Shown here one piece after another: positions 22,026 to 52,026 of a stretch of DNA of 59,805 nt. The notes beneath the pieces were generated by a model. It saw only the letters and a program-made list of their open reading frames with translations. It did no database searches and was not told the DNA's origin. Source of the DNA: Candidatus Poseidoniaceae archaeon (lineage in GTDB: Archaea; Thermoplasmatota; Poseidoniia; Poseidoniales; Poseidoniaceae); the NCBI GenBank assembly GCA_949373075.1, contig CASIBX010000002.1:65019-124823 (forward strand), written 5' to 3'. The position numbers and the translations under genes were made by a program. The first letter of the stretch is position 1, and every line of letters begins with the position of its first letter.

Positions 22026-25000
22026 TCACAACAAGTCATCCAAGAAGGAGGTGTCTATTCCTCCCTGTGCAGGCTGCTGTTGCTGAACAGGCTGTGTCCA
22101 ACGCTGAGGTTGTTGCTGTTGAGCAGGTTCCTCGATACGCTGTGCAGCCGCGTAAATGTCACTCTGTTGAGCTGGCTGTATGGCTGCCGGCGGTGCGACA
22201 GGTGGTGCAACCTGTCCCCCGAAACTTCCCGAATCATCCCAGCCATCTCTGGCTTGAATTCCCCAAGTAGCTTCTTGCAATTCCCAATCCTTGTTCTTTG
22301 TAGGACTTCCTCCTCGTCCTCTGAATACTAGGATGAGTAGGATTACTGTCACAAGAAGTAAGCCTGCTAAAATCATGTTGTCTGTAGTCAATAATTCTCC
22401 CAAGTTTGTAGACGAATCATCACCATCGGAGGAGTCTTCTCCACTACCGGATTTGCCAGGAGGGTCAATCCTTTCAGAATCAATAATCTCACGGCTGAAT
22501 TGGCTATCTTTAGCAGAAACTCCAATCCACCAAGTTGTATCATCACTTAGTTCAGGGAAGACACTTGGAGTAATCATGAACGAATCTGATGAACCAGATT
22601 CACCAACCATCTCAGCATCTACAACTTCACTAAATTCAGTATCAGAGATGTATACGACATATGAGCGAACACTTGGGTCAGTACTGTGGTCCCAAGATGC
22701 CAATATGGAATCATCGACCCATTCTAATTCTAAACCTTCAATGTCAGGTAAGTACGCTGCCTTATCATCAACACCATCATCGATAGCGATAGCGGTTGAT
22801 GTAACTAAATTATTTCTGTACGCATTTCCTGAAGAATCAACAGCAACTACTGCAACTGTAACAGGCAGGTTTGGAATAACCAAAGCATCGTATGCTAAGA
22901 TCTCGATAGTTAGCGGTAACTCTGGACTTCTGTCGAAAGTAGCTATTGGGTTCTGAGGGCCATTTCCATCAGCGCCTACCGATGTGAAGGAGAATGCAGC
23001 AGCATAAACTTCGTAACTACCGATATCACTAGATTCTGATAATGCAAACTCTAGTTGAACTGCAGTACCGTCATCACTTGGCATATCATACAGGTCAATA
23101 TCTTCAAGGCGCTCAGGAGGTGTAGTATCTGCTAGATTGTCGATAGGCGTAACCATAGCTGTGTTCAAATTGTCAAGGTGTACGTTGCCCTTGATATCGT
23201 GAACTGTTATTGCCACATACAACTCAATATCTGGCTGAATCTGACCTGGTAATGCTGAAGAAATACTACTTCCTCCATACAGTGCTGTATTCAAAGTCAA
23301 CTGAATAGGACTCTTTTCAGTATCAATCCATTGTTTGTTCAACACGATACAGCCACATTTTCCTGGCTCAGTTCCTGCCTCAACCCAGAAGTCAGTCAGG
23401 TCATCCAATGGATATTCTGCAACCCAGATAACATAGTAATCGAAGTCATCAACTTCGGTTGGAGCCCATGATACATCTATTGCAGTACCGTCATCATCAG
23501 GGTGGTCCCAAGCGTTTAGTTCAACGATTCTATCAGGTTCAGTAGCACCATCGATATTGTTGACATATGGCGTAACTTCTAGAATCGTTACATCCCCAGT
23601 ATCTCCATTGAGCCACTTGTCATAAGCTACTGCTCCGATCCAATATGCTTGACCGTCAATCAATTGAGTTTCACCAATTGAATCGATGATTGTCATATTA
23701 GTTTCACAATCTGGAACGATTGCTGCTTCCTCCATTCCATCAACATTTGAAGGAGGTATCTGTTGCTCATCAATTCCTCCTTCAATGTTTATTGGTACCA
23801 TGTAAATTACAACATAGGCACAGTCACTGGCAACGGAATTATCCCAGCCCATCTGCACTCTTCCGCCGTCGTCTTCAGGAACATCTTCTGCCCAAACGCC
23901 GGTGAGTTTTGGCGGAGGAACGCCGTCATTGACTCCTCCTGTAGGTACTACTGGACCAATCACTGTTGCATTCATCAAATCCTCCTGACCGGATTCATCA
24001 ACACAAGTGAATGCAAGCCAGTGTGGCTTACCTGCTTCCAAAGTTAGAGTGCTGACGTTACCTACTTGCGGTAAGATTTCAGCGTTTAGAGTCAAGCCTA
24101 GAGCATCGGTAACTTCAGTTGTAGATGCGTAAACGTGAGTACTTGCAAGGTCCAATGCATTACATCTTGCCCATTCAGCAAAGACTTCACCATCAACAGC
24201 AACAAATTGGTCTCCTGATACAGCGGTAGCCCATGCAGGAGGTAGAGGGACTTCATCGGAAGGTGTAGCTGGGCCAAATGGCGTAGAAGGGATTCCAAAT
24301 CTTCCATCGTTGTATTCTACTACAACAACTGCCCAATATTCAACCCCGTCTTGAAGAGATTGTCCTTCAATAGTTGTAATTTCAGTCTGTAGCCTAGAGT
24401 GCAGGCTGACTGAAGCATCAGGCGTTCGAGGTTGTAATTCAGATACAGTCGGTTGTGAAGTCCACGGTCCTTCGTTCAGATAAACGAGATATCTTGAGAA
24501 GTCCTCATCGTGAACTAAGGTCCAATTTGCCATTAGAGTAGAGCCGCCGTCGTCAGGCCTATCCCATAGAGAGAGTCCTTGTATTGGAGTTTCAGTTCTG
24601 AACCAATCGTAGGTCAGTTTGACCCACATGCTGCCATTGGATGGAGAACTAACTTGAAGATTAACATGGCGAGTTCCATTGATCAATATTCCATTATCAA
24701 TTGCATATTGCATACTGGTAATGAACGTAGGGTCGTTGGAGAGATTAACAGTAGAGTTCCATTTCATACCAACTAACTTAGCCCATGTAGCAGCGCCATC
24801 TACTGGCGAGGAGAATGTCAGAGGAACGTTCTGCATAGATATTCCATGAGCACCTGCGGTTCCATCATCACTCAATGTAACAGCATTTGCAGAGTCGACT
24901 AATACAACTTGCATCCCTGGGTGAGTATAATCTGTAACATCTTGGAATTGTAACTGGAATCCTAATGATAGAGGGTCAGCCCTTCTTAGGTCAAAGGATT

Positions 25001-28000
25001 CAACCTCGTCACCGGTATTCAATGACCAAACTTTCAGTCCATTAGATGTTGAGATAGTCACGTATGAATTTGAAACAACGCTACCACCAGTTGCATCTTG
25101 TGCACTGTAGCGGCCAATTATTGGGTTTCCATTGATACCTGCTTGTATAACGGTCCCTCCGTTATCTCCAATTGCGAGTAGGTATGAACCATCAGACCGC
25201 ATACTGTAAACAGGCCAATCTTCCATAGAGAATACATTAGGTCCTGTGTTGAATTGATTACTACTTCGTACCCAGTGAACTAGAGGTCCTATGTCCGTTG
25301 CAATATGAACTCCCCAAATGTCTGAGGCGACCGCAGTAACCGAGTTTGAAGGCAATTGGTCAAATTGGTGTAGATCAATAATAGTTTGATTGCCAGCATT
25401 GAATTGAGTAATTCCTGGTCTTTCAGTACCTCTGCCATCATGCGATATGAACAAACTAGGCGTGCCTGCAGAAGAAGTTGTTTTTCCTACTAAGGCCCAA
25501 CTAGATGTGCCCATCATTCCATCAGCAGCTGTGAAGGTGGAGAATGAGTTTGCAGTTGTATCATACATCGATAATCCACTTGGTGTAGCCATCCAGATAT
25601 TCCCATCAAATTCGATAATATCTTCGACATAAGATATTGGTAAACCGTCGAGAGCGGTCCATGCGGTATCCCAAGTATTTCCTGTGCTATTCCATCTACC
25701 CACACCGTTATTTGTTGCTATGTAGATTGTTTCATCACCAATATTATTCGAGACTGTCAAAAATCCGTTTACATTGTTTGAAGGTAAACCAGCAAGTAAC
25801 CTTCCTGCAGTATATGCGTTAGATGTTGTATTGAAAACTTGAATTCCAGCAGATGATGTCCCTGAACCCTGTAAACCGATGAACAAATCATCCCCTACAA
25901 CAGCAAGACCATCTTGGAAATTATGTATTCCCGTAGGAAGAGCTTGTAGCGTACCAGTAGTGGTATCTAACATCCTGAGCCCTCGGTTGTTGCTAGCGAG
26001 GTACAGGTCAGTTCCTACCAATTCGATATCAGTAACGGCAGCATTTGCAGGGATAGTCCATCCCTTTTGCCACTCTACTGAACCATTCGCTAATTTTAAT
26101 CCCTGTAGAACTCCAGAACCGGTGTTCTGCCATGAGGCTGAAGCAACCCAAAGGTGAGTTTGGTTTCCAACCATTGAAGTTACTTGACCGCTGACTAAGT
26201 TAGGTAATGCATGAAGAGTGTTCTGTCCTAATTGACCCAATGTGTCTACATGAGAATATCCTGAAGTCCCTCCTGCTTGGCCGATTAGCCATTGGGTGCC
26301 AAGCCAATCTATTGAAGAAACAGCAGAACCAGTGGATAGGATACTCGCTGTTCCCACTGTAGCACCATTGGCAGAGAGTACTGCGTATCCGCCTCCGATT
26401 ACATTGTCACCTTGTGTTCCAATATCGTAACCAATAGCCAGTTTTCCTCCTGCGAATTCCATTGCACCCCACCAGACAGGGTCTGTTGGAATATTGTGTG
26501 AAGAGGATGTAAGTTCAGATAACCAAAGGCCAGTATTGTAATCGTGTCGAGAGATTGGCTCAGAATCGTCATTGTATCCTACGTAGAGAATGTTACTTGA
26601 ATCATCACAAGCCACCGCAGCAGCTTCACCGTCTGCCAATCGAGTAGAGGTTGTGAAAGTCGATAAGACAGTTCCATTGGCTAAGTCAAATCTGGCAACT
26701 CCGCCGTTGTTTGCAGTTACTGAAACGTGGAATATTCCTGCGCACATGGCCATTCCAATCGGGTACCCATTTGGTATTCCATTGGTACCCGTGTCCCACG
26801 AAGTCCAAGCTCCCGTGCCGTCTAGGTGCATAATTTCTCCATCAAGCCCTTGCCATCCCTGATTCCTTGCTGTACCTACGACTAAGTCTGTACCATTTGT
26901 CCACAACTCGTAAACAATATCATCTGCAGAGTTTGGTAATCCAGAACCTGCAGTCCAGGTGCTTAACCAAGAAGAACTAGATTCATCAAATCTAGCGACG
27001 CCATCTTCGGTTGCGAATAATATTTCACCATCAAATTCTAGGATTTCTCGAATCGGGAATTCAAAGTTATCCCATTCTCCAATTTTACTTCCGTTCGAAG
27101 CAAATGCTTCGAGTTTAGATTCGCCCCAAGATATCCAATTTGTTCCGGCTGAAGAGATGAAAGAAGTCACTCTATCTACCGAGCCGCTAGGCATCAATTC
27201 AGCCTGCCATGAATCAGTGGTAAGGTTGTAAAGTGCAATTCCTCCGCTGCCTTGTGTTTGCCACCACTGTCCGCTAGCAACCGATACATGAAGCACATCG
27301 CCGATAATCTCTAGGCCGTATACATCTCCTCCATTTTCATCGACTTGGGAGCCTGCATCAAGTGCAGATTTTGATGTAAAGTTCGCAATATCAATTCGAT
27401 AGACGCTATCTGAAGAGTACTGCTGATGGTAGTATAGCGTGTCGCCGTAGATCGCTAAATCGTATGGTTCGCCATTTCCTGAATAGAGACTGTCAGTTAT
27501 CTCAATATCATAAACTTCTGAACCAGTGGTAACATTGAGTAGCTGGAAACCATCACTTCCTCCAACCCAGATGTGCCCTGGTCTGAAATCTGCAACCAAT
27601 CCAGTAACTTCTTCATTTCCTCCATCTAGGTAATTGTCTTCAGTCCAAGTGGTTAACCAATTATTGTTTGGAACGTCATATCTTGCAACACCAATGCCGT
27701 TAAGCCCGATATATGCAATGTCATCAATAACGACCACTAAGGCGTTATCAGTTTCTTCTCCTGCTTCCCAGGTACCAGTTACGGAGAATGACGACTTATC
27801 GATAATTCCGACCCCACTGGTAGTCCCGCCAAATACGGTAGAACTATTCATGCCGATAGAATAAACTCCCCAATTTGGCATCCCATCTTGCGCATTTACA
27901 CAATCTTGAATTGAAGTTTGACTGTATTTACATACGCCAATATTTGTTGCTGAGTATGCAGTTGAGCCATCGAATATGAAATCAAAATGTTGGTCAGGTT

Positions 28001-28094
28001 GTAAATTCCAACTGCTGCCTTGGCTGAGGGCTGTGGCTGAGTTACCATTCCAGACAATTGCACCGTCGCCTGTACCGATGTATAGACCCGCCAC
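22026..28094 (-). CDS. giant surface propeller/Fn3 protein, C-terminal part after frameshift
   Basis: The third and largest segment of one gene that seems to run from 30329 to 22026 (about 2766 aa if repaired). Residues 1 to about 1130 of this segment are tandem propeller-type blades with repeated GVARFD/W, NNLWVA-like and SWTxxDGLP motifs, resembling two-component-regulator or WD/YVTN propellers. Next come about six Fn3-like domains, each led by a phrase like WDRPDDGGS or YDMPSDDGTAVQ. A membrane helix (near residue 1895; LAGLLLVTVILLILVF) is followed by a cytoplasmic tail rich in Gln, Pro and Ala. It is probably a cell-surface binding protein. The GTG at 28094 is the first codon after an in-frame stop and not a real start. 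PabC follows after four bases. Confidence 0.75.
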   Translation of the reverse strand: MAGLYIGTGDGAIVWNGNSATALSQGSSWNLQPDQHFDFIFDGSTAYSATNIGVCKYSQTSIQDCVNAQDGMPNWGVYSIGMNSSTVFGGTTSGVGIIDKSSFSVTGTWEAGEETDNALVVVIDDIAYIGLNGIGVARYDVPNNNWLTTWTEDNYLDGGNEEVTGLVADFRPGHIWVGGSDGFQLLNVTTGSEVYDIEITDSLYSGNGEPYDLAIYGDTLYYHQQYSSDSVYRIDIANFTSKSALDAGSQVDENGGDVYGLEIIGDVLHVSVASGQWWQTQGSGGIALYNLTTDSWQAELMPSGSVDRVTSFISSAGTNWISWGESKLEAFASNGSKIGEWDNFEFPIREILEFDGEILFATEDGVARFDESSSSWLSTWTAGSGLPNSADDIVYELWTNGTDLVVGTARNQGWQGLDGEIMHLDGTGAWTSWDTGTNGIPNGYPIGMAMCAGIFHVSVTANNGGVARFDLANGTVLSTFTTSTRLADGEAAAVACDDSSNILYVGYNDDSEPISRHDYNTGLWLSELTSSSHNIPTDPVWWGAMEFAGGKLAIGYDIGTQGDNVIGGGYAVLSANGATVGTASILSTGSAVSSIDWLGTQWLIGQAGGTSGYSHVDTLGQLGQNTLHALPNLVSGQVTSMVGNQTHLWVASASWQNTGSGVLQGLKLANGSVEWQKGWTIPANAAVTDIELVGTDLYLASNNRGLRMLDTTTGTLQALPTGIHNFQDGLAVVGDDLFIGLQGSGTSSAGIQVFNTTSNAYTAGRLLAGLPSNNVNGFLTVSNNIGDETIYIATNNGVGRWNSTGNTWDTAWTALDGLPISYVEDIIEFDGNIWMATPSGLSMYDTTANSFSTFTAADGMMGTSSWALVGKTTSSAGTPSLFISHDGRGTERPGITQFNAGNQTIIDLHQFDQLPSNSVTAVASDIWGVHIATDIGPLVHWVRSSNQFNTGPNVFSMEDWPVYSMRSDGSYLLAIGDNGGTVIQAGINGNPIIGRYSAQDATGGSVVSNSYVTISTSNGLKVWSLNTGDEVESFDLRRADPLSLGFQLQFQDVTDYTHPGMQVVLVDSANAVTLSDDGTAGAHGISMQNVPLTFSSPVDGAATWAKLVGMKWNSTVNLSNDPTFITSMQYAIDNGILINGTRHVNLQVSSPSNGSMWVKLTYDWFRTETPIQGLSLWDRPDDGGSTLMANWTLVHDEDFSRYLVYLNEGPWTSQPTVSELQPRTPDASVSLHSRLQTEITTIEGQSLQDGVEYWAVVVVEYNDGRFGIPSTPFGPATPSDEVPLPPAWATAVSGDQFVAVDGEVFAEWARCNALDLASTHVYASTTEVTDALGLTLNAEILPQVGNVSTLTLEAGKPHWLAFTCVDESGQEDLMNATVIGPVVPTGGVNDGVPPPKLTGVWAEDVPEDDGGRVQMGWDNSVASDCAYVVIYMVPINIEGGIDEQQIPPSNVDGMEEAAIVPDCETNMTIIDSIGETQLIDGQAYWIGAVAYDKWLNGDTGDVTILEVTPYVNNIDGATEPDRIVELNAWDHPDDDGTAIDVSWAPTEVDDFDYYVIWVAEYPLDDLTDFWVEAGTEPGKCGCIVLNKQWIDTEKSPIQLTLNTALYGGSSISSALPGQIQPDIELYVAITVHDIKGNVHLDNLNTAMVTPIDNLADTTPPERLEDIDLYDMPSDDGTAVQLEFALSESSDIGSYEVYAAAFSFTSVGADGNGPQNPIATFDRSPELPLTIEILAYDALVIPNLPVTVAVVAVDSSGNAYRNNLVTSTAIAIDDGVDDKAAYLPDIEGLELEWVDDSILASWDHSTDPSVRSYVVYISDTEFSEVVDAEMVGESGSSDSFMITPSVFPELSDDTTWWIGVSAKDSQFSREIIDSERIDPPGKSGSGEDSSDGDDSSTNLGELLTTDNMILAGLLLVTVILLILVFRGRGGSPTKNKDWELQEATWGIQARDGWDDSGSFGGQVAPPVAPPAAIQPAQQSDIYAAAQRIEEPAQQQQPQRWTQPVQQQQPAQGGIDTSFLDDLL

Positions 28095-37877: not shown

Positions 37878-37963
37878 GGTTGTGTGGCTCAACTCCCTAT
37901 TGATAGCCCCATCGCTTCTAAATCGCCCTATACATTGATGTCTTGGTCTCTCTCGCCAAAATC

Positions 37964-42293: not shown

Positions 42294-42377
42294 TAATCTG
42301 TGTTCAGATGGTCCCACATGATGGTTGTTTGGAACAAATTGTACAGCCGGTGGCTCTAAAGGCGTCCGGCTTAGGGC

Positions 42378-42396
42378 CTCACCCCGGAGGGGTGAG
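42378..42396 (+). promoter_or_regulatory. hairpin CTCACCCC-GGA-GGGGTGAG sequestering ribosome-binding site
   Basis: A perfect 8-bp stem with a three-base loop that ends two bases before the ATG at 42399. The 3' arm contains GGTGAG, so folding would block the Shine-Dalgarno site. The core ACCCC-N3-GGGGT is shared with the palindromes at 13518 and 50851. Confidence 0.6.
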
Positions 42397-42398
42397 TG

Positions 42399-45300
42399 AT
42401 GCTACAGGAAAATAACCTCGCCGCTTGCCTAAAATCCGGCATGAAGGAGAACCTACCTTTTGCAACTCGCCAACGCCTAGTTGCTAAGACTCCAGAATGG
42501 AGAATGTTGGATAAACCTTGGAAGTCTCTTCTTTTAATCGCATTAAATGAACTACAGGTTCCAAGTGAAGATGAGGATGGTCAGCCATCCAACATGATGA
42601 GGGGTCGAAGGTCACCTCGAGGCCGCCGTGGAGGACGAGGTGCTAGTAGTGGCCCAATGGAATGGCTCCCTGAATCAAGTGAGGTTTTGTTGGATGATGG
42701 CGCATCATCACCGGCTTTCAGACTTGCAGTATTGCTAATTCGCAAAACATTGTTCACTGATGATTGGGAAGAATCCTCCGATGCCGTAGTAGATGATTTA
42801 CGAGACCAAGTTACCTCAAATGGAGTTCACCCTGTGTGGGCTAAAATGGCCGAGTCAACACCTATCCTCGCCCAATTCGCAGCATTTCCACAATCAGATG
42901 TCGTCGAAGAAGAAGAAGACTCATTCGATTTAGGCGCTGGTTGGATTGACCCTTCGAAATCAAAATCACTTTCTCTTTCTCTGGATAAACTTGATTCTAG
43001 TGTAACTAATGCAACCGTCAAAATGGCATTACAGAAAGCTAGAGCACAACTCAATGGCAAGAGAGGACTTCGTGACATCAAAGGACTTGAAGCTCTTGAA
43101 GGAGAGGCAAGTATCATCAGTGTATTATTGAATATCCATTTAGATAATGATGCAACTGATTCGTTGAAAGAATTGGCAAAGAGTGACTCAGGTTTAGCCG
43201 ATGCGTTAGCCGACTTGATTCAACTCCGCGCTGGCAATCCTAGCGATTGGCAGAACTCTCGTTCATTGTCTGGCGAAGACGAATTATCCTTGGCACGAAA
43301 GAAGGCTGCTTGGGATTTAATGCCCGCAGATGCCTCTGAATTGACTAGTGAAGAACTCGCAGAAGGGCTAGGGATTGCATCCACTCCTCAGCAGAAAGAG
43401 ACTCTAACTTGGTGGAGATTAGCCGCCCTGGTTAAGGAAGGCTCTTCGGAAATGGCCCTTGAATTACTAACTTCATTATCGGTAGAGTCGGATGCAGACA
43501 TGAGCGTTTTGATGCCACTTGTCAAGGAGTTAGGGGATGAGGCATTCGCTTGGCTTGCATCACAGATTGAGAATCTGGCTCCAGATTCACTTTCTGATAT
43601 CATAGTCGATGAAGGAGTTGGCATCACACTCCGCGCAGCAGCAGCACGCAGACTTCACGACATGGGAGCATCAGTAGGCATCGAGGCATCGATTGACCTG
43701 TTTACTCGTATTCTCGATTTGACACGCCTCGCTCAAGTGTTGTTAGTCGATGATCAACGCTGTGCAGACAACCCTTACTCCACATTACTAGTGGCTCATT
43801 TACTTCCAGCAAGAACCAAAGGTTGGAATTTTGAAACCATTCGTAAAGCCAGGCGTAATGCACTTTCAACCGTTGACCAAGCAGAAGTGCCAAGCGCCTT
43901 TTCACCGGCTAGCAGAGGATTGATTCTGATGCTTGACGGGGCTGCTCAATCAGACGACAACTGGGTAGTAGACACTCTTAATAAAAACGGAATTAAAGCA
44001 TTCAACCATTGTCGCCAAGCCTTGAAAGATGGAGGCGATGGTCTAGCAGACTCCAAGGTAATTGATACTCTAGCCAAGAGTGTTGAAAGCGCTGATTTAA
44101 CCGATGTTGAATCTAGATTATTCAATGCAGTAATCGATACTCTAAGGCTGAACCGTGCCTCCTGGTTACTGCAGACAGGCAATGCCTCTGGAGTAATTGA
44201 ATTACTAGACGGTTTACTTTCTGGTGAAGTGACTGCAATGCCTATGATGCATGCTGTGCGCCACCTTGTATTGGAATATGATATTGGTTTGGCCAATCTC
44301 GTTTCGTGGTACCAAGACAACGATCCTCAATCTCCTTGGCACACTCTTGCACGTGCAGCAATTCATGCTGGCAACGGTGAAGAATTAAACGCGGCTAGAG
44401 ATTACCGCAGAGCTGGTGAACATGCAGACTTCGATTATGAGCACAGGATTTTACTTCACCGTAAAGCTCTCATCCACCTAGCGCATGCTGAGCAATGGTC
44501 TGAAGCAGTGGCTCTTTTGGAGCAAGAACCTGCTCTGAAATCCGCTCTTACCAAGAGGTTCCAACTTTACCTTAATGTTTCACATATTGCTGCAAGTAAG
44601 CGCAGTTCTGATGAAGCGACAAGATTGCTGAAGAGTTTCGTTAAGAGGACGGAAATGGTAAATCAAGAGGACCAACAAGGACAAACTCAACTTGTCGAGA
44701 GAGTCAAGCATTCTGAAGAAGAATTAGACATGCTACGAAACTACCCGACATCTCACCCTAGACCACTTCCCCATGAGCCATTTTCTGGACGTGTCAAAGC
44801 CGCACTAAACACCCTTCAGCGCGAAAGAAGACGCAACCGGCACACCTTTGAGAATCGCTATTCACAAGCTATGATGCTTGAGCCTTCAGGGGAAGAGATT
44901 TACGAAATCGCTCTCGAAGCATCTGCAGAAAAGCCGCTTGAAGGATTGATGCTATTGGAGAGAGCGCAGAACTCTGGACGGTTTTCAATTCTAGATATCA
45001 AGAGGCTTGGAGATGCAGAGCGTAGTTTGTTCGCAACTCACAGACACAATCTACCGATTAAGCAACGTTCATACTTACGAAATTTAGCCTTGAGCCCTCT
45101 AGTAATCGTAGATACGAATATTCTAATCGATGAATTACAACACAGAATCTCTGATAAATTAGGAATCAATACTGAAGCATCCCTTGACATTGGCGGAAGA
45201 GGTAGATTCCATAGAATCCTCAAGCACCGTGCACAGCAAGGAGTAATTCAGTTGTGGCTACCGAAGGTTGTCAGGCATGAATTAACTATTATTGCAGGCG

Positions 45301-45779
45301 ATATTGAACGAATTAGAAGCCGATTTGTAGATACTCTTGTTGACTCTAAAACCCTTGACAGTATACTAACCTCAGAAAACCTTACGGAGATAGTCGATGC
45401 AATAGTTAGTGACTTCTCTACTTGGAAGCCAATGGATTTACATCTTGAAGATGAGGCAGATGATGAAGAAATCAGGAGTTCATTCAAGCAATTCTTTGTA
45501 GACCACACCGAAGTGTATGACGAAATAACTACCATGAAGAGGATGAGTGGGGAGCCAATGCGCACGGTTATCGGCAAGCGAGATATCTATCCTGAAACAG
45601 CAGACCAGAACCTGATGTGCCTAGCAACTGCAATGGCTAATCGCCCCCTCGGCGAGATTGGCAGTATTCTAATCGCTACAAGGGATTCAGATTTCACACT
45701 TGTAGCACGGGGAATCGAAGAGCGATTCGGATTTGGAGTAGTGGCAAATAGCCGAGACCTCAACTCTTGGCTACGTTGA
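42399..45779 (+). CDS. large helical protein with RG-rich segment and C-terminal PIN nuclease domain
   Basis: An 1126-residue cytoplasmic protein. Residues 66-84 are an RG-rich stretch (MMRGRRSPRGRRGGRG), of a type that binds RNA. The middle, to about residue 830, is helical and repeat-like (YRRAGEHADFDYEH, then LIHLAHAEQWSEAVALLEQE), suggestive of TPR. The last about 220 residues are a PIN domain: VDTNILIDEL with Asp905, acidic LEDEADDEE, and ATRDSDF with Asp1096 as metal ligands. PIN domains are usually single-strand RNases. No antitoxin gene is adjacent, and the size argues against VapC. A role in RNA decay or ribosome quality control is inference. GTG at 42396 is a minor alternative start. 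Confidence 0.75.
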   Translation: MLQENNLAACLKSGMKENLPFATRQRLVAKTPEWRMLDKPWKSLLLIALNELQVPSEDEDGQPSNMMRGRRSPRGRRGGRGASSGPMEWLPESSEVLLDDGASSPAFRLAVLLIRKTLFTDDWEESSDAVVDDLRDQVTSNGVHPVWAKMAESTPILAQFAAFPQSDVVEEEEDSFDLGAGWIDPSKSKSLSLSLDKLDSSVTNATVKMALQKARAQLNGKRGLRDIKGLEALEGEASIISVLLNIHLDNDATDSLKELAKSDSGLADALADLIQLRAGNPSDWQNSRSLSGEDELSLARKKAAWDLMPADASELTSEELAEGLGIASTPQQKETLTWWRLAALVKEGSSEMALELLTSLSVESDADMSVLMPLVKELGDEAFAWLASQIENLAPDSLSDIIVDEGVGITLRAAAARRLHDMGASVGIEASIDLFTRILDLTRLAQVLLVDDQRCADNPYSTLLVAHLLPARTKGWNFETIRKARRNALSTVDQAEVPSAFSPASRGLILMLDGAAQSDDNWVVDTLNKNGIKAFNHCRQALKDGGDGLADSKVIDTLAKSVESADLTDVESRLFNAVIDTLRLNRASWLLQTGNASGVIELLDGLLSGEVTAMPMMHAVRHLVLEYDIGLANLVSWYQDNDPQSPWHTLARAAIHAGNGEELNAARDYRRAGEHADFDYEHRILLHRKALIHLAHAEQWSEAVALLEQEPALKSALTKRFQLYLNVSHIAASKRSSDEATRLLKSFVKRTEMVNQEDQQGQTQLVERVKHSEEELDMLRNYPTSHPRPLPHEPFSGRVKAALNTLQRERRRNRHTFENRYSQAMMLEPSGEEIYEIALEASAEKPLEGLMLLERAQNSGRFSILDIKRLGDAERSLFATHRHNLPIKQRSYLRNLALSPLVIVDTNILIDELQHRISDKLGINTEASLDIGGRGRFHRILKHRAQQGVIQLWLPKVVRHELTIIAGDIERIRSRFVDTLVDSKTLDSILTSENLTEIVDAIVSDFSTWKPMDLHLEDEADDEEIRSSFKQFFVDHTEVYDEITTMKRMSGEPMRTVIGKRDIYPETADQNLMCLATAMANRPLGEIGSILIATRDSDFTLVARGIEERFGFGVVANSRDLNSWLR

Positions 45780-49678: not shown

Positions 49679-50812
49679 TCAGTTTACAAACTCGATATTA
49701 CGGGATTTGAGAGCACGTAATTGTCTGTTTTCACTAGCGCCATGAATTTGTTCTGACCTGACTCCAGTCAGCACTAACATTACGCGGATATCTTCGCCGA
49801 GACTTTCATCAACAGCAGCACCCCAGATAATTCTAGCATTTTCAGAAACCTTTCCTTGGATTAGTTTCGCACACTTTTCGGCCTCGCCCAAAGTTAGGTT
49901 AGGACCACCTACGACATTGATTAGAGCGCCTCTAGCATCGGACACGTCCAAATCGAGGAGTGGTGAATGTAGTGCTTCAAGAGTAGCAGCTTCTGCTCTT
50001 CCAGGTCCACTAGCAGAGCCTAATCCAATCATAGCAACCCCGGAACCGGAGTTGATTACAGCCTTGAGGTCCTCAAAGTCCAAGTTGACCATACCGTCAG
50101 TTGTTAGGAGTTCAGTTACGCCGGTAATTGCACGAACTAATAATTCGTCACCTACTCTAAATGCACTTGCAAGAGGTAGGTCTCTAACGCCTTCAATCTC
50201 TAGTAGGCGTTCATTTGGAATAACTAGAATTGTGTCACAGTATTCACGTAATCTTTCAAGTCCCCATTCTGCATTTTGCCTTCGTAGAGTTCCTTCAGAG
50301 TTGAATGGGTATGTAACAACTGCAACAGTTAGTGCGCCTTGCTCTTTAGCAAGTCTAGCAATATGTCCTGCGGCTCCAGTTCCTGAACCACCGCCCATAC
50401 CTGCTGTAATGATTGCAAGTTGAGTATCATCAGTAATTCTTCTTAGACTGTTCTCGCTTTCTAGTGCCGCGGCTTCACCCTTAGTTGGGTCTCCACCTGC
50501 TCCTCTTCCACGTGCAGTTCTTCCAATCAGAATCTTGTTTTCTAGCGGACTCATCAACAATGCTTGCGCATCGGTATTGATTGCATGTCCCGTGACATAG
50601 CGATTATCGAATAAACCTTCATCGTGTAAACGGCTAACTGCGTTGCATCCTGCACCGCCTGCACCATATACTCGGATCCTAGGTTGAAGTGACTCTAACA
50701 GGCTGCGTAGTTCAGCGTCATTCGAATCCATATCTTCAACACTAGTTGGCCTAATTGAAGGCCCTTCTTCTTCTTCAGCAAGTTCGAGAACACGCTCTAT
50801 GAGGTGACGCAT
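49679..50812 (-). CDS. ftsZ: cell division protein FtsZ
   Basis: Tubulin-like GTPase that forms the division ring. VYGAGGAGCNAVSRL begins the nucleotide fold at residue 48; the GTP signature GGGSGTG is at residues 140-146, and the T7-loop region is DLDFEDL-like (MVNLDFEDLKAVI). Length 377 aa, with a 43-residue N-terminal extension and no conserved C-terminal FtsA-binding peptide, as in archaeal FtsZ1/FtsZ2. Which of the two archaeal types it is cannot be told here. A palindrome lies 39 bases upstream. Confidence 0.95.
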   Translation of the reverse strand: MRHLIERVLELAEEEEGPSIRPTSVEDMDSNDAELRSLLESLQPRIRVYGAGGAGCNAVSRLHDEGLFDNRYVTGHAINTDAQALLMSPLENKILIGRTARGRGAGGDPTKGEAAALESENSLRRITDDTQLAIITAGMGGGSGTGAAGHIARLAKEQGALTVAVVTYPFNSEGTLRRQNAEWGLERLREYCDTILVIPNERLLEIEGVRDLPLASAFRVGDELLVRAITGVTELLTTDGMVNLDFEDLKAVINSGSGVAMIGLGSASGPGRAEAATLEALHSPLLDLDVSDARGALINVVGGPNLTLGEAEKCAKLIQGKVSENARIIWGAAVDESLGEDIRVMLVLTGVRSEQIHGASENRQLRALKSRNIEFVN

Positions 50813-50850
50813 GACGCTTCATCCTCTTTCCACCTACCTTGAATGTGCCG

Positions 50851-50867
50851 CCACCCCTTAGGGGTGG
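50851..50867 (-). promoter_or_regulatory. palindrome CCACCCC-TAA-GGGGTGG between radA and ftsZ
   Basis: A perfect 7-bp stem with a three-base loop, 23 bases after the radA stop and 39 before the ftsZ start. It has the ACCCC-N3-GGGGT core also found at 13518 and 42378. It could end radA transcripts or regulate ftsZ. Confidence 0.55.
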
Positions 50868-50890
50868 GAAGCCGATTACGGAAGTGCTGC

Positions 50891-51913
50891 TCAATCACGG
50901 AGCCCGTCTTCACAGACCTGGTATACACATTCTCCATCCGGAAGGTTTGGAGAGTCTACTAGGCGAGCGATTCTGCGTCCGCCTTTCGCCTTACGAAGGT
51001 AGAGTCTGAATGTGGATGCGTGAGCTAGAACGTGCCCACCAATCGGTTTGGTTGGATCTCCCCACATAGCATCAGGCTTGCTCATAACTTGGTTAGTTAC
51101 AAGGACCAATGCATTGTTGACATCAGCTAATTGCTTGAGGTCTTTGAGATGCCTGTTGAGTTTTTGCTGTCGGTTAGCAAGCATTCCACGGCCTATGAAT
51201 TCAGCTCTGAAGTGACTTGTCAGTGAATCGACGATAATCATCTTGACATTTATTCCTCTACTCATTCTCTTAATCTCTTCAGCGAGAAGCATTTGGTGAG
51301 CGGAGTTGTATGCTCGCGCAACATGTATTCTCTCAAGCACAGCTTCTGGGTCTAGTCCATGTCCACGGGCCATTTGAGTAATCCTCTCTGGACGGAATGT
51401 ATCTTCAGTATCGATGTAGAAAACATCTCCATCAAATCCACCTTGGTCTACTGGCATTGTGCAGTTGACTGCTAATTGGTGACCGATCTGGGTTTTACCT
51501 GAACCAAACTCCCCGTAAACTTCTACAAGAGATTGGGTTTCAAATCCACCAGATAGTAGGTCATCAATCGATTGAACCATGCTGGATAGTTTCTGAACTT
51601 CACGCCTTCTCTCAAGAAGGGCGGAACCAGATACGAATCCACCGATGTTAGCCATTTTCTTAGCGGCTTGAATTATCTTACCTGCTACTGCTTCACCTAG
51701 TTCAGCTTGTTCTGCAAGGTCACCTGGGCTCATTACTGCTAGTGCTAGTAATTCATCAAAGCCTGCTTCACGCAACTTTTCAGCGGTTGCTGGGCCCACG
51801 CCTGGAAGGTCTTCGATTGTCGCCTCAGGCTCTAGTTCCTCTTTCATTATCATTACCTCTGCATCAGGGGCTTCTTCTTCTTTCTGCTTACTCGACTTGC
51901 TCTTTGCTGCCAT
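50891..51913 (-). CDS. radA: DNA recombinase RadA
   Basis: Archaeal RecA/Rad51 homologue that catalyses strand exchange in homologous recombination. Residues 35-80 are the helix-hairpin-helix DNA-binding domain ([17 protein letters not shown]). Walker A is GEFGSGKTQ (134-142), Walker B lies in [16 protein letters not shown], and the L2 region follows [13 protein letters not shown] long charged N-terminal tail precedes it. The ATG at 51913 (340 aa) is preferred over the upstream 51943 start. Placed upstream of ftsZ on the same strand. Confidence 0.96.
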
Positions 51914-52026
51914 GAAGCGAACTGTCCAGCCTAAGTATATCAAGGCAAGAAGGAGTCCTTACTGTGGTCTTGAAAGTGGTATCTATTGAACCCATGCATC
52001 AATAACGAGTCACTGCAAGGTCGCAG

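What the first reader, a model, noticed from the sequence alone, without database searches (positions are those of the whole stretch)
42399..45779. RG-rich, helical-repeat protein with a C-terminal PIN nuclease
Seen: RG-rich segment (residues 66-84), about 750 residues of TPR-like helices, and a PIN domain with VDTNILID and ATRDSDF. Known: PIN RNases are mostly small toxins or parts of decay complexes, and RG boxes bind RNA in eukaryotes. Inferred: an RNA surveillance or decay factor built in one chain, reminiscent of SMG6-like layouts, with translation possibly limited by its leader hairpin.
Basis: partly seen in the sequence, partly recalled or inferred. Interest (0 to 1): 0.55.

Follow-up and report, generated by a model that had tools for sequence, protein, structure and literature searches.

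The report
Large PIN-nuclease protein of marine archaea
A very large protein, seen here only in one group of abundant ocean archaea, joins a long spiral of helices to a conserved nuclease-type domain that probably cuts RNA; it has no named family and its target is unknown.

Summary
The 1126-aa ORF is real and conserved in Candidatus Poseidoniales (Marine Group II): 116 of 127 order members matched, 0 of 262 other genomes of the phylum. Predicted structure: N-terminal helices, a disordered arginine-rich stretch (58-84), an almost all-helical solenoid (90-884) and a C-terminal PIN domain (888-1126). Structural alignment groups the C-terminus with PIN nucleases (VapC11 Z 11.0, SMG6 Z 7.6), although Foldseek alone gave nothing significant. 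Acids D905, E961, D1069, D1096 and D1098 are invariant in 32 of 32 rows. Best reading: a lineage-specific single-chain endoribonuclease, solenoid and Arg stretch for docking, PIN for cutting. SMG6 likeness is one of layout; no sequence link was found. RNase P RNA, PIN_6, RNase_PH and RMMBL genes remain in nearly all order genomes tested, so it looks like an addition. Two genera lack it at an otherwise kept locus, so it is dispensable there. The 'leader hairpin' is a palindrome conserved in the genus, one copy in the own (60% complete) assembly; it may overlap the transcription start and be a DNA operator. New variant of a known kind; function inferred.

The parts
42399..45779 (+). Whole ORF, 1126 aa (GTG at 42396 is an alternative start one codon upstream)
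   Evidence: orthologues
42399..42569 (+). N-terminal helices, residues 1-57
   Evidence: AlphaFold2 model
42570..42650 (+). Disordered arginine-rich stretch, residues 58-84 (R76, R77, R80 conserved)
   Evidence: pLDDT <50; conservation; composition
42666..45050 (+). Almost all-helical solenoid, residues 90-884, with one beta-hairpin at 749-771
   Evidence: partial TPR/solenoid structural matches
45060..45776 (+). PIN domain, residues 888-1126
   Evidence: AF2 of the domain alone, VIA-align to PIN structures, weak Pfam PIN_12 in 14 of 27 members, best E 0.00098
45111..45113 (+). PIN acidic residue D905 (VDTN)
   Evidence: 32 of 32 rows
45279..45281 (+). PIN acidic residue E961
   Evidence: 32 of 32 rows
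45603..45605 (+). PIN acidic residue D1069 (E1066 at 45594-45596 also 32 of 32)
45684..45692 (+). PIN acidic residues D1096 and D1098 (RDSDF)
   Evidence: both 32 of 32 rows
45303..45545 (+). Helical insert within the PIN fold, residues 969-1049, between the E961 helix and the D1069 helix
   Evidence: secondary structure; residues 961-1000 are the least conserved 40-residue block of the protein (0.45)
42378..42396 (.). Palindrome CTCACCCC-GGA-GGGGTGAG; its 3' arm holds the Shine-Dalgarno-like GGGGTGA
   Evidence: Shine-Dalgarno reading is from recall
42347..42361 (+). CCGGTGGCTCTAAAG, candidate core promoter (TATA-like), similar in most genus leaders
   Evidence: leaders printed; one exact copy in the window; promoter role is inference

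Best explanation
The gene encodes a chromosomal, vertically inherited, metal-dependent PIN endoribonuclease of Candidatus Poseidoniales. The roughly 800-residue alpha-solenoid is the docking surface (for an RNP, the ribosome or another decay factor), the flexible arginine-rich stretch adds RNA affinity, and the C-terminal PIN domain cuts the RNA that is brought in. Shown by sequence or prediction: the gene, its architecture, order-wide conservation, invariant active-site acids, presence beside the usual archaeal RNA-processing genes. Inferred: that the substrate is RNA, the docking role of the solenoid, the role of the Arg stretch, and participation in RNA turnover or quality control.
For: PIN fold by structural alignment: VapC11 6a7v Z 11.0, rmsd 3.0 over 138 residues; SMG6 2hww Z 7.6, rmsd 4.4 over 130; after row 40 of the 50 shown, Z falls to 4.8 and to unrelated proteins. 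D905, E961, D1069, D1096, D1098 in 32 of 32 rows and among the invariant columns of a second, overlapping alignment of 43 rows. This PIN type matched in 114 of 389 phylum genomes, all in the order, and inside the long protein except in what look like broken copies. Protein matches in 116 of 127 order members, 101 of them in one near-full-length stretch by my count of the rows. Neighbourhood kept: of 80 named loci, 63 hold both the divergent DUF4079-like gene and the convergent isocitrate dehydrogenase; of 14 f2 loci (short flanks), 10 hold the DUF4079-like gene. No relative among viral contigs with the pattern-based search; no PADLOC family above chance level. Arg patch (6-9 Arg) in 32 of 32 rows.
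Against: No assay, substrate or expression data. Foldseek by itself gave no PIN match for the domain among the rows shown (50 of 79 matches at E <= 10, best 0.89 and unrelated); the window protein has no Pfam hit. PIN-like folds also include DNA nucleases and inactive members (recalled). Two genera lack the gene with the locus otherwise kept, so it is not essential throughout the order. The solenoid points to no specific functional relative.
Confidence: 0.6

Rival explanations
1. A stable-RNA processing factor (rRNA, tRNA or a spacer) rather than a turnover factor: the solenoid binds a ribosomal particle or precursor and the PIN makes a maturation cut, as Nob1 and protein-only RNase P do.
For: Protein-only RNase P rows at Z 6.0-7.6 and a pre-40S entry at 5.9 in the structural list; the gene is a core chromosomal gene of the order.
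Against: Archaeal RNase P RNA in 37 of 40 and PIN_6 (Nob1 type, recalled) in 38 of 40 order genomes, so those two cuts are already served; the gene is absent in two genera.
Confidence: 0.2
2. An immune or suicide effector: the solenoid senses a viral trigger and unleashes the PIN domain on cellular RNA.
For: A repeat sensor joined to a nuclease is common in defence proteins (recalled); absence in two genera fits a dispensable gene.
Against: Kept neighbourhood with housekeeping genes; no PADLOC family for 3 full-length proteins, and for the PIN alone only a chance-level Cas13a hit, E 0.014; no Pfam NTPase or TIR domain in the protein; conservation fairly even, 0.45-0.71 per 40-residue block.
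Confidence: 0.12
3. A DNA structure-specific nuclease of the wider PIN/FEN fold, working in repair.
For: The wider fold includes FEN1-type nucleases (recalled); a Rad51-family gene lies 5 kb downstream.
Against: The structural list is filled by VapC, SMG6, exosome and protein-only RNase P entries; the Rad51-family gene is several genes away. FEN-type features were not looked for.
Confidence: 0.06

Closest known systems
VapC-type PIN ribonucleases (e.g. M. tuberculosis VapC11, 6a7v)
   Same: PIN fold (Z 11.0, rmsd 3.0, 138 residues); acidic residues in the PIN order (order recalled)
   Different: The VapC11 chain has 139 residues and an antitoxin partner; this PIN has 239 residues with a helical insert, is fused to 887 further residues and has no antitoxin-like neighbour
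SMG6 (EST1A)
   Same: Layout: long helical part and C-terminal PIN endonuclease (SMG6 layout recalled); PIN folds align (2hww Z 7.6)
   Different: No sequence relationship detected; archaeal; solenoid not matched to the SMG6 helical domain; no UPF1-type partner looked for
Pfam PF16289 PIN_12
   Same: Best Pfam relative of the PIN domain: 14 of 27 members hit, best E 0.00098
   Different: Window PIN reaches E 0.11, 13.3 bits against a cut-off of 32, so not filed there
Protein-only RNase P (PRORP, HARP)
   Same: Helical part plus PIN-like nuclease (recalled); HARP-type rows Z up to 7.6, PRORP Z 6.4
   Different: Order genomes keep RNase P RNA (37 of 40); no sequence match in PDB searches

Membership tests
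PIN-domain nuclease superfamily | PIN fold | tested here: met
   VIA-align rows up to Z 11.0, drop to 4.8 after row 40; Foldseek alone not significant
PIN-domain nuclease superfamily | Conserved acidic metal ligands | tested here: met
   D905, E961, D1069, D1096, D1098 in 32 of 32 rows
PIN-domain nuclease superfamily | Metal-dependent RNA cleavage | not testable with these tools
   needs an assay
Pfam PF16289 PIN_12 | Score above the curated cut-off (32 bits) | tested here: not met
   window PIN 13.3 bits
SMG6 | C-terminal PIN with active acids | tested here: met
SMG6 | Detectable sequence homology to SMG6 PIN chains in the PDB | tested here: not met
   no SMG6 chain at E <= 10 with PIN profile A3 (2 matches) or full profile A1 (7 matches)
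SMG6 | 14-3-3-like TPR domain before the PIN | tested here: inconclusive
   solenoid gives only generic helical-repeat matches
SMG6 | UPF1 and exon-junction-complex partners | not tested
   no search made
VapBC toxin-antitoxin | Small toxin with an adjacent antitoxin gene | tested here: not met
   1126 aa; neighbours are a divergent DUF4079-like gene and a convergent isocitrate dehydrogenase
TPR proteins | Pfam TPR match above cut-off | tested here: not met
   no Pfam hit in the window protein; TPR_7 in 2 of 32 members, best E 0.32
TPR proteins | Helix-pair solenoid of TPR type | tested here: inconclusive
   P58(IPK) Z 9.1, LGN 8.9 and similar, below the tool's helical background
Known anti-phage systems (PADLOC) | Match to a PADLOC model | tested here: not met
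   0 families for 3 full-length proteins; PIN alone only Cas13a E 0.014

The most novel reading that the evidence does not exclude
Poseidoniales independently evolved a single-chain, SMG6-like RNA surveillance endonuclease: a giant alpha-solenoid that docks on ribosomes or RNPs and presents a PIN domain, working beside the archaeal exosome, and (in the window's genus) controlled by a palindromic operator at its own transcription start.
Probability: 0.22. Interest if true: 0.7.

Novelty: new variant of a known kind. Interest (0 to 1): 0.42.

Why it matters
Poseidoniales are described as the most abundant planktonic archaea of ocean surface waters and as lacking cultured representatives (starts of abstracts listed, papers of 2018 and 2019 among them). 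A large, unnamed PIN protein kept in nearly the whole order would be a lineage-specific addition to archaeal RNA metabolism, and a test case for whether scaffolded endonucleolytic decay arose outside eukaryotes. It offers one protein, one predicted active site, and natural lineages without it for comparison.

Tried and rejected
Substitute for RNase P: rejected, RNase P RNA in 37 of 40 order genomes (the own, 60% complete assembly is one of the 3 misses). Substitute for Nob1: rejected, PIN_6 in 38 of 40 at E <= 0.001 and 35 of 40 over the cut-off (the own genome is under it). Substitute for the exosome or for RMMBL-domain (RNase J/CPSF type, recalled) nucleases: RNase_PH in 26 of 26 and RMMBL in 25 of 26 chosen genomes (24 of the order, 2 of f3), including all 8 tested genomes of the two genera that lack the gene.

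Diverged copy in those genera: a 1211-1246-residue open frame beyond OsmC in five of the eight fetched loci looked like a candidate by length, but no frame of 40 aa or more in the eight loci matched profile A1 better than E 1.5; by eye it reads like a ribonucleotide reductase (recalled, not searched).

Solenoid identity: Foldseek gave 695 matches at E <= 10, 2 at E <= 0.001 (a CAND1-SCF chain and an IFT-A chain) with TM-scores 0.11-0.14, not usable. No SMG6 helical-domain chain was listed for the solenoid, which does not exclude it. PDB sequence searches gave nothing useful. The solenoid was not folded or searched alone.

RNA hairpin: covariation inconclusive, 85.7% of cells paired against 85.3% in shuffles, 209 of 500 shuffles as high, though slid versions fall to 40-55%; the fold energy of the leader is not unusual, z -0.42; a loose test (any stem of 6 or more pairs, G-U allowed) is passed by 13 of 44 window genes. 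A first pattern with a 4-nt centre found nothing.

General promoter motif: CGRTGNNTTNAA has 2 matches in the window against 1.15 expected, one ending 29 nt before tRNA-Met; the upstream regions of the six tRNA genes found in 648,170 bases show no clear shared motif. The argument for the transcription start is therefore weak.

Literature: listings only, with the starts of abstracts; no paper was opened. Searches (10 of 78 shown; 10 of 1,464,286; 12 of 12; 8 of 47; 12 of 31): none shown describes this protein by title or start of abstract.

Full report
What it is. The window lies in a genome of Candidatus Poseidoniales (Marine Group II archaea): the closest named relative, whose protein is 93% identical, is titled an uncultured Candidatus Poseidoniales archaeon, and the other titles among the 80 loci kept (of 174 found) are Poseidoniales, Poseidoniaceae, Poseidonia or unspecified Euryarchaeota/euryarchaeote. 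The ORF at 42399-45779 encodes 1126 residues. Of 41 genomes searched, own included, 38 match, 33 of them in one near-full-length stretch. In a draw of 389 genomes of the phylum, 116 matched. All 116 belong to families f1 and f2 of the order; 11 further members of these families are listed without a match, and the remaining 262 genomes, taken as outside the order because the list is sorted by kinship, have none. So this is an order-level chromosomal gene.

Architecture. AlphaFold2 on 43 rows gives mean pLDDT 83.3 and pTM 0.64: N-terminal helices, a stretch at 58-84 under pLDDT 50 that holds the Arg-rich segment, an almost all-helical region from 90 to 884 with one beta-hairpin at 749-771, and a C-terminal alpha/beta domain. 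All 32 rows have 6-9 arginines in the segment (R77 32 of 32), but RG dipeptides vary from 0 to 5, so 'arginine-rich' is safer than 'RG box'. The solenoid aligns with TPR and other solenoid chains at Z up to 9.1; the tool warns that under about 13 this can be common helical background. I claim the fold class only.

The PIN domain. Predicted alone (239 residues, pLDDT 81.8, pTM 0.82) and aligned by VIA-align, its first 40 of 50 listed rows are, by title or by my recall of the entry, PIN or PIN-like nucleases, except row 8, a chain of a Cas9-PcrIIC1 complex that I could not identify. They are led by VapC11 (Z 11.0); SMG6 is at 7.6, an exosome chain at 7.5 (Rrp44 by recall), the T. brucei RRP44 PIN at 6.7 and RNA-free RNase P at up to 7.6; row 41 is at 4.8 and unrelated. 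Against this, Foldseek itself gave no useful match, the window protein has no Pfam hit, and PIN_12 is a weak relative. D905, E961, D1069, D1096 and D1098 are invariant in 32 of 32 rows and among the invariant columns of the second alignment of 43 rows (some proteins are in both). In the model they lie after the first strand, in the helix after the next strand, at the start of a later helix, and after the following strand, which is where I recall PIN ligands to be. A helical insert separates the second and third. In the phylum this PIN type matched in 114 of 389 genomes, all in the order; the two order genomes that matched but not here (G001, G209) showed only the N-terminal part there. The short open frames look like broken copies: in eight genomes (G007, G103, G138, G170, G324, G361, G380, G400) other parts of the protein lie on another contig or in another frame, and the G005 fragment ends at a contig edge. 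I did not check every contig edge.

Context. The gene is divergent from a DUF4079-like gene (E 1.7e-6, 28.8 bits, below the cut-off of 31.4) and convergent with isocitrate dehydrogenase. Of 80 named loci, 65 hold the DUF4079-like gene, 77 isocitrate dehydrogenase and 63 both, in all 63 on the strands seen here; several of the rest are cut by contig ends. Of 14 f2 loci, most with flanks of about 1.5 kb, 10 hold the DUF4079-like gene, 12 the gene at 37943 and 2 isocitrate dehydrogenase. The Pfam scans of 20 neighbouring ORFs show no antitoxin, nuclease operon or defence gene (several had no hit at all); 0 PADLOC families for the full-length protein. RNase P RNA, PIN_6, RNase_PH and RMMBL genes are present in nearly all order genomes tested, so it adds to the standard machinery.

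Loss. Of the 11 order members without a match, six are genus g4 and two g17, and no member of these genera matched. I fetched the eight loci. In seven, the 37943 gene and isocitrate dehydrogenase are kept close together and the PIN gene is gone; the eighth (G031) ends at a contig edge before isocitrate dehydrogenase. No frame in them matched the profile. In the four I scanned (three g4, one g17) a methyltransferase gene stands beside isocitrate dehydrogenase; in the other g17 locus there is no room for one between the two flank genes. G293 and G302 have the flank gene at a contig edge and G378 gave no flank hit, so these three are not tested. The protein is dispensable in at least two lineages.

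Leader. A perfect 8-bp palindrome with a 3-nt centre lies at 42378-42396, just before the ATG. Its 7-bp core occurs once in the own assembly, which is 60% complete; of six other genomes, G003 and G007 have one, G004 and G021 two, and G010 and G055 none. Of 20 genus leaders, 18 have a stem of 6 or more pairs with at least 5 G-C pairs; L005 has the variant CACTTC-GGA-GAGGTG and L017 has lost it. Two of 31 other leaders pass the same test and L077 has a 5-bp form; two of 14 f2 leaders, both of genus g5, have a different hairpin with the same GTA loop; 2 of 44 window genes pass, this gene included. Some leaders are near-identical, so these are not independent counts. The element is real, but a TATA-like CTCTAAAG ends 37 nt before the ATG; if it is the promoter, transcription would begin inside the palindrome, leaving only the Shine-Dalgarno-like arm in the mRNA. 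I favour a DNA operator over an RNA hairpin, with low confidence.

Mechanism. Most likely (0.6): a metal-dependent endoribonuclease, scaffolded in one chain. The solenoid and Arg stretch choose the RNA or RNP, the PIN cuts. Acids and architecture rest on sequence and prediction; substrate, docking partner and pathway are inferred. It works like SMG6 in layout, but is not filed as a member: no sequence link was found.

Novelty. PIN nucleases and solenoids are well known. This combination, at this size and order-wide, matched no Pfam family and no NCBIfam family near its cut-off (17.6 bits against 94.7; the PIN members gave only weak hits to other families), and no paper shown in the listings describes it by title or start of abstract. 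I file it as a new variant of a known kind.

Noticed in passing
window 42378-42396: Palindrome before the start codon, in 19 of 20 genus leaders counting one variant, with a hairpin of different stem sequence and the same GTA loop in two f2 leaders (L024, L035).
   Followed up: partly
L038 (G005 contig C17): A second, contig-edge PIN fragment (34% identical to the window protein) in a genome that already has a copy at 67%; perhaps a misbinned contig.
   Followed up: no
genomes: 21 of 24 Poseidoniales genomes tested have three RNase_PH-domain matches, typically two adjacent and a third elsewhere, while the two f3 genomes have two.
   Followed up: no
L161-L164, L167: In five loci of genus g4, which lacks the PIN gene, a 1211-1246-residue open frame lies beyond OsmC and reads by eye like a ribonucleotide reductase (not searched).
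   Followed up: partly
window 49679-51943: FtsZ and a Rad51-family gene lie side by side downstream; both are also on 54 of the 80 named loci, several of the rest being cut short.
   Followed up: no
window 22026-28094: A 2022-aa ORF on the minus strand, not examined.
   Followed up: no
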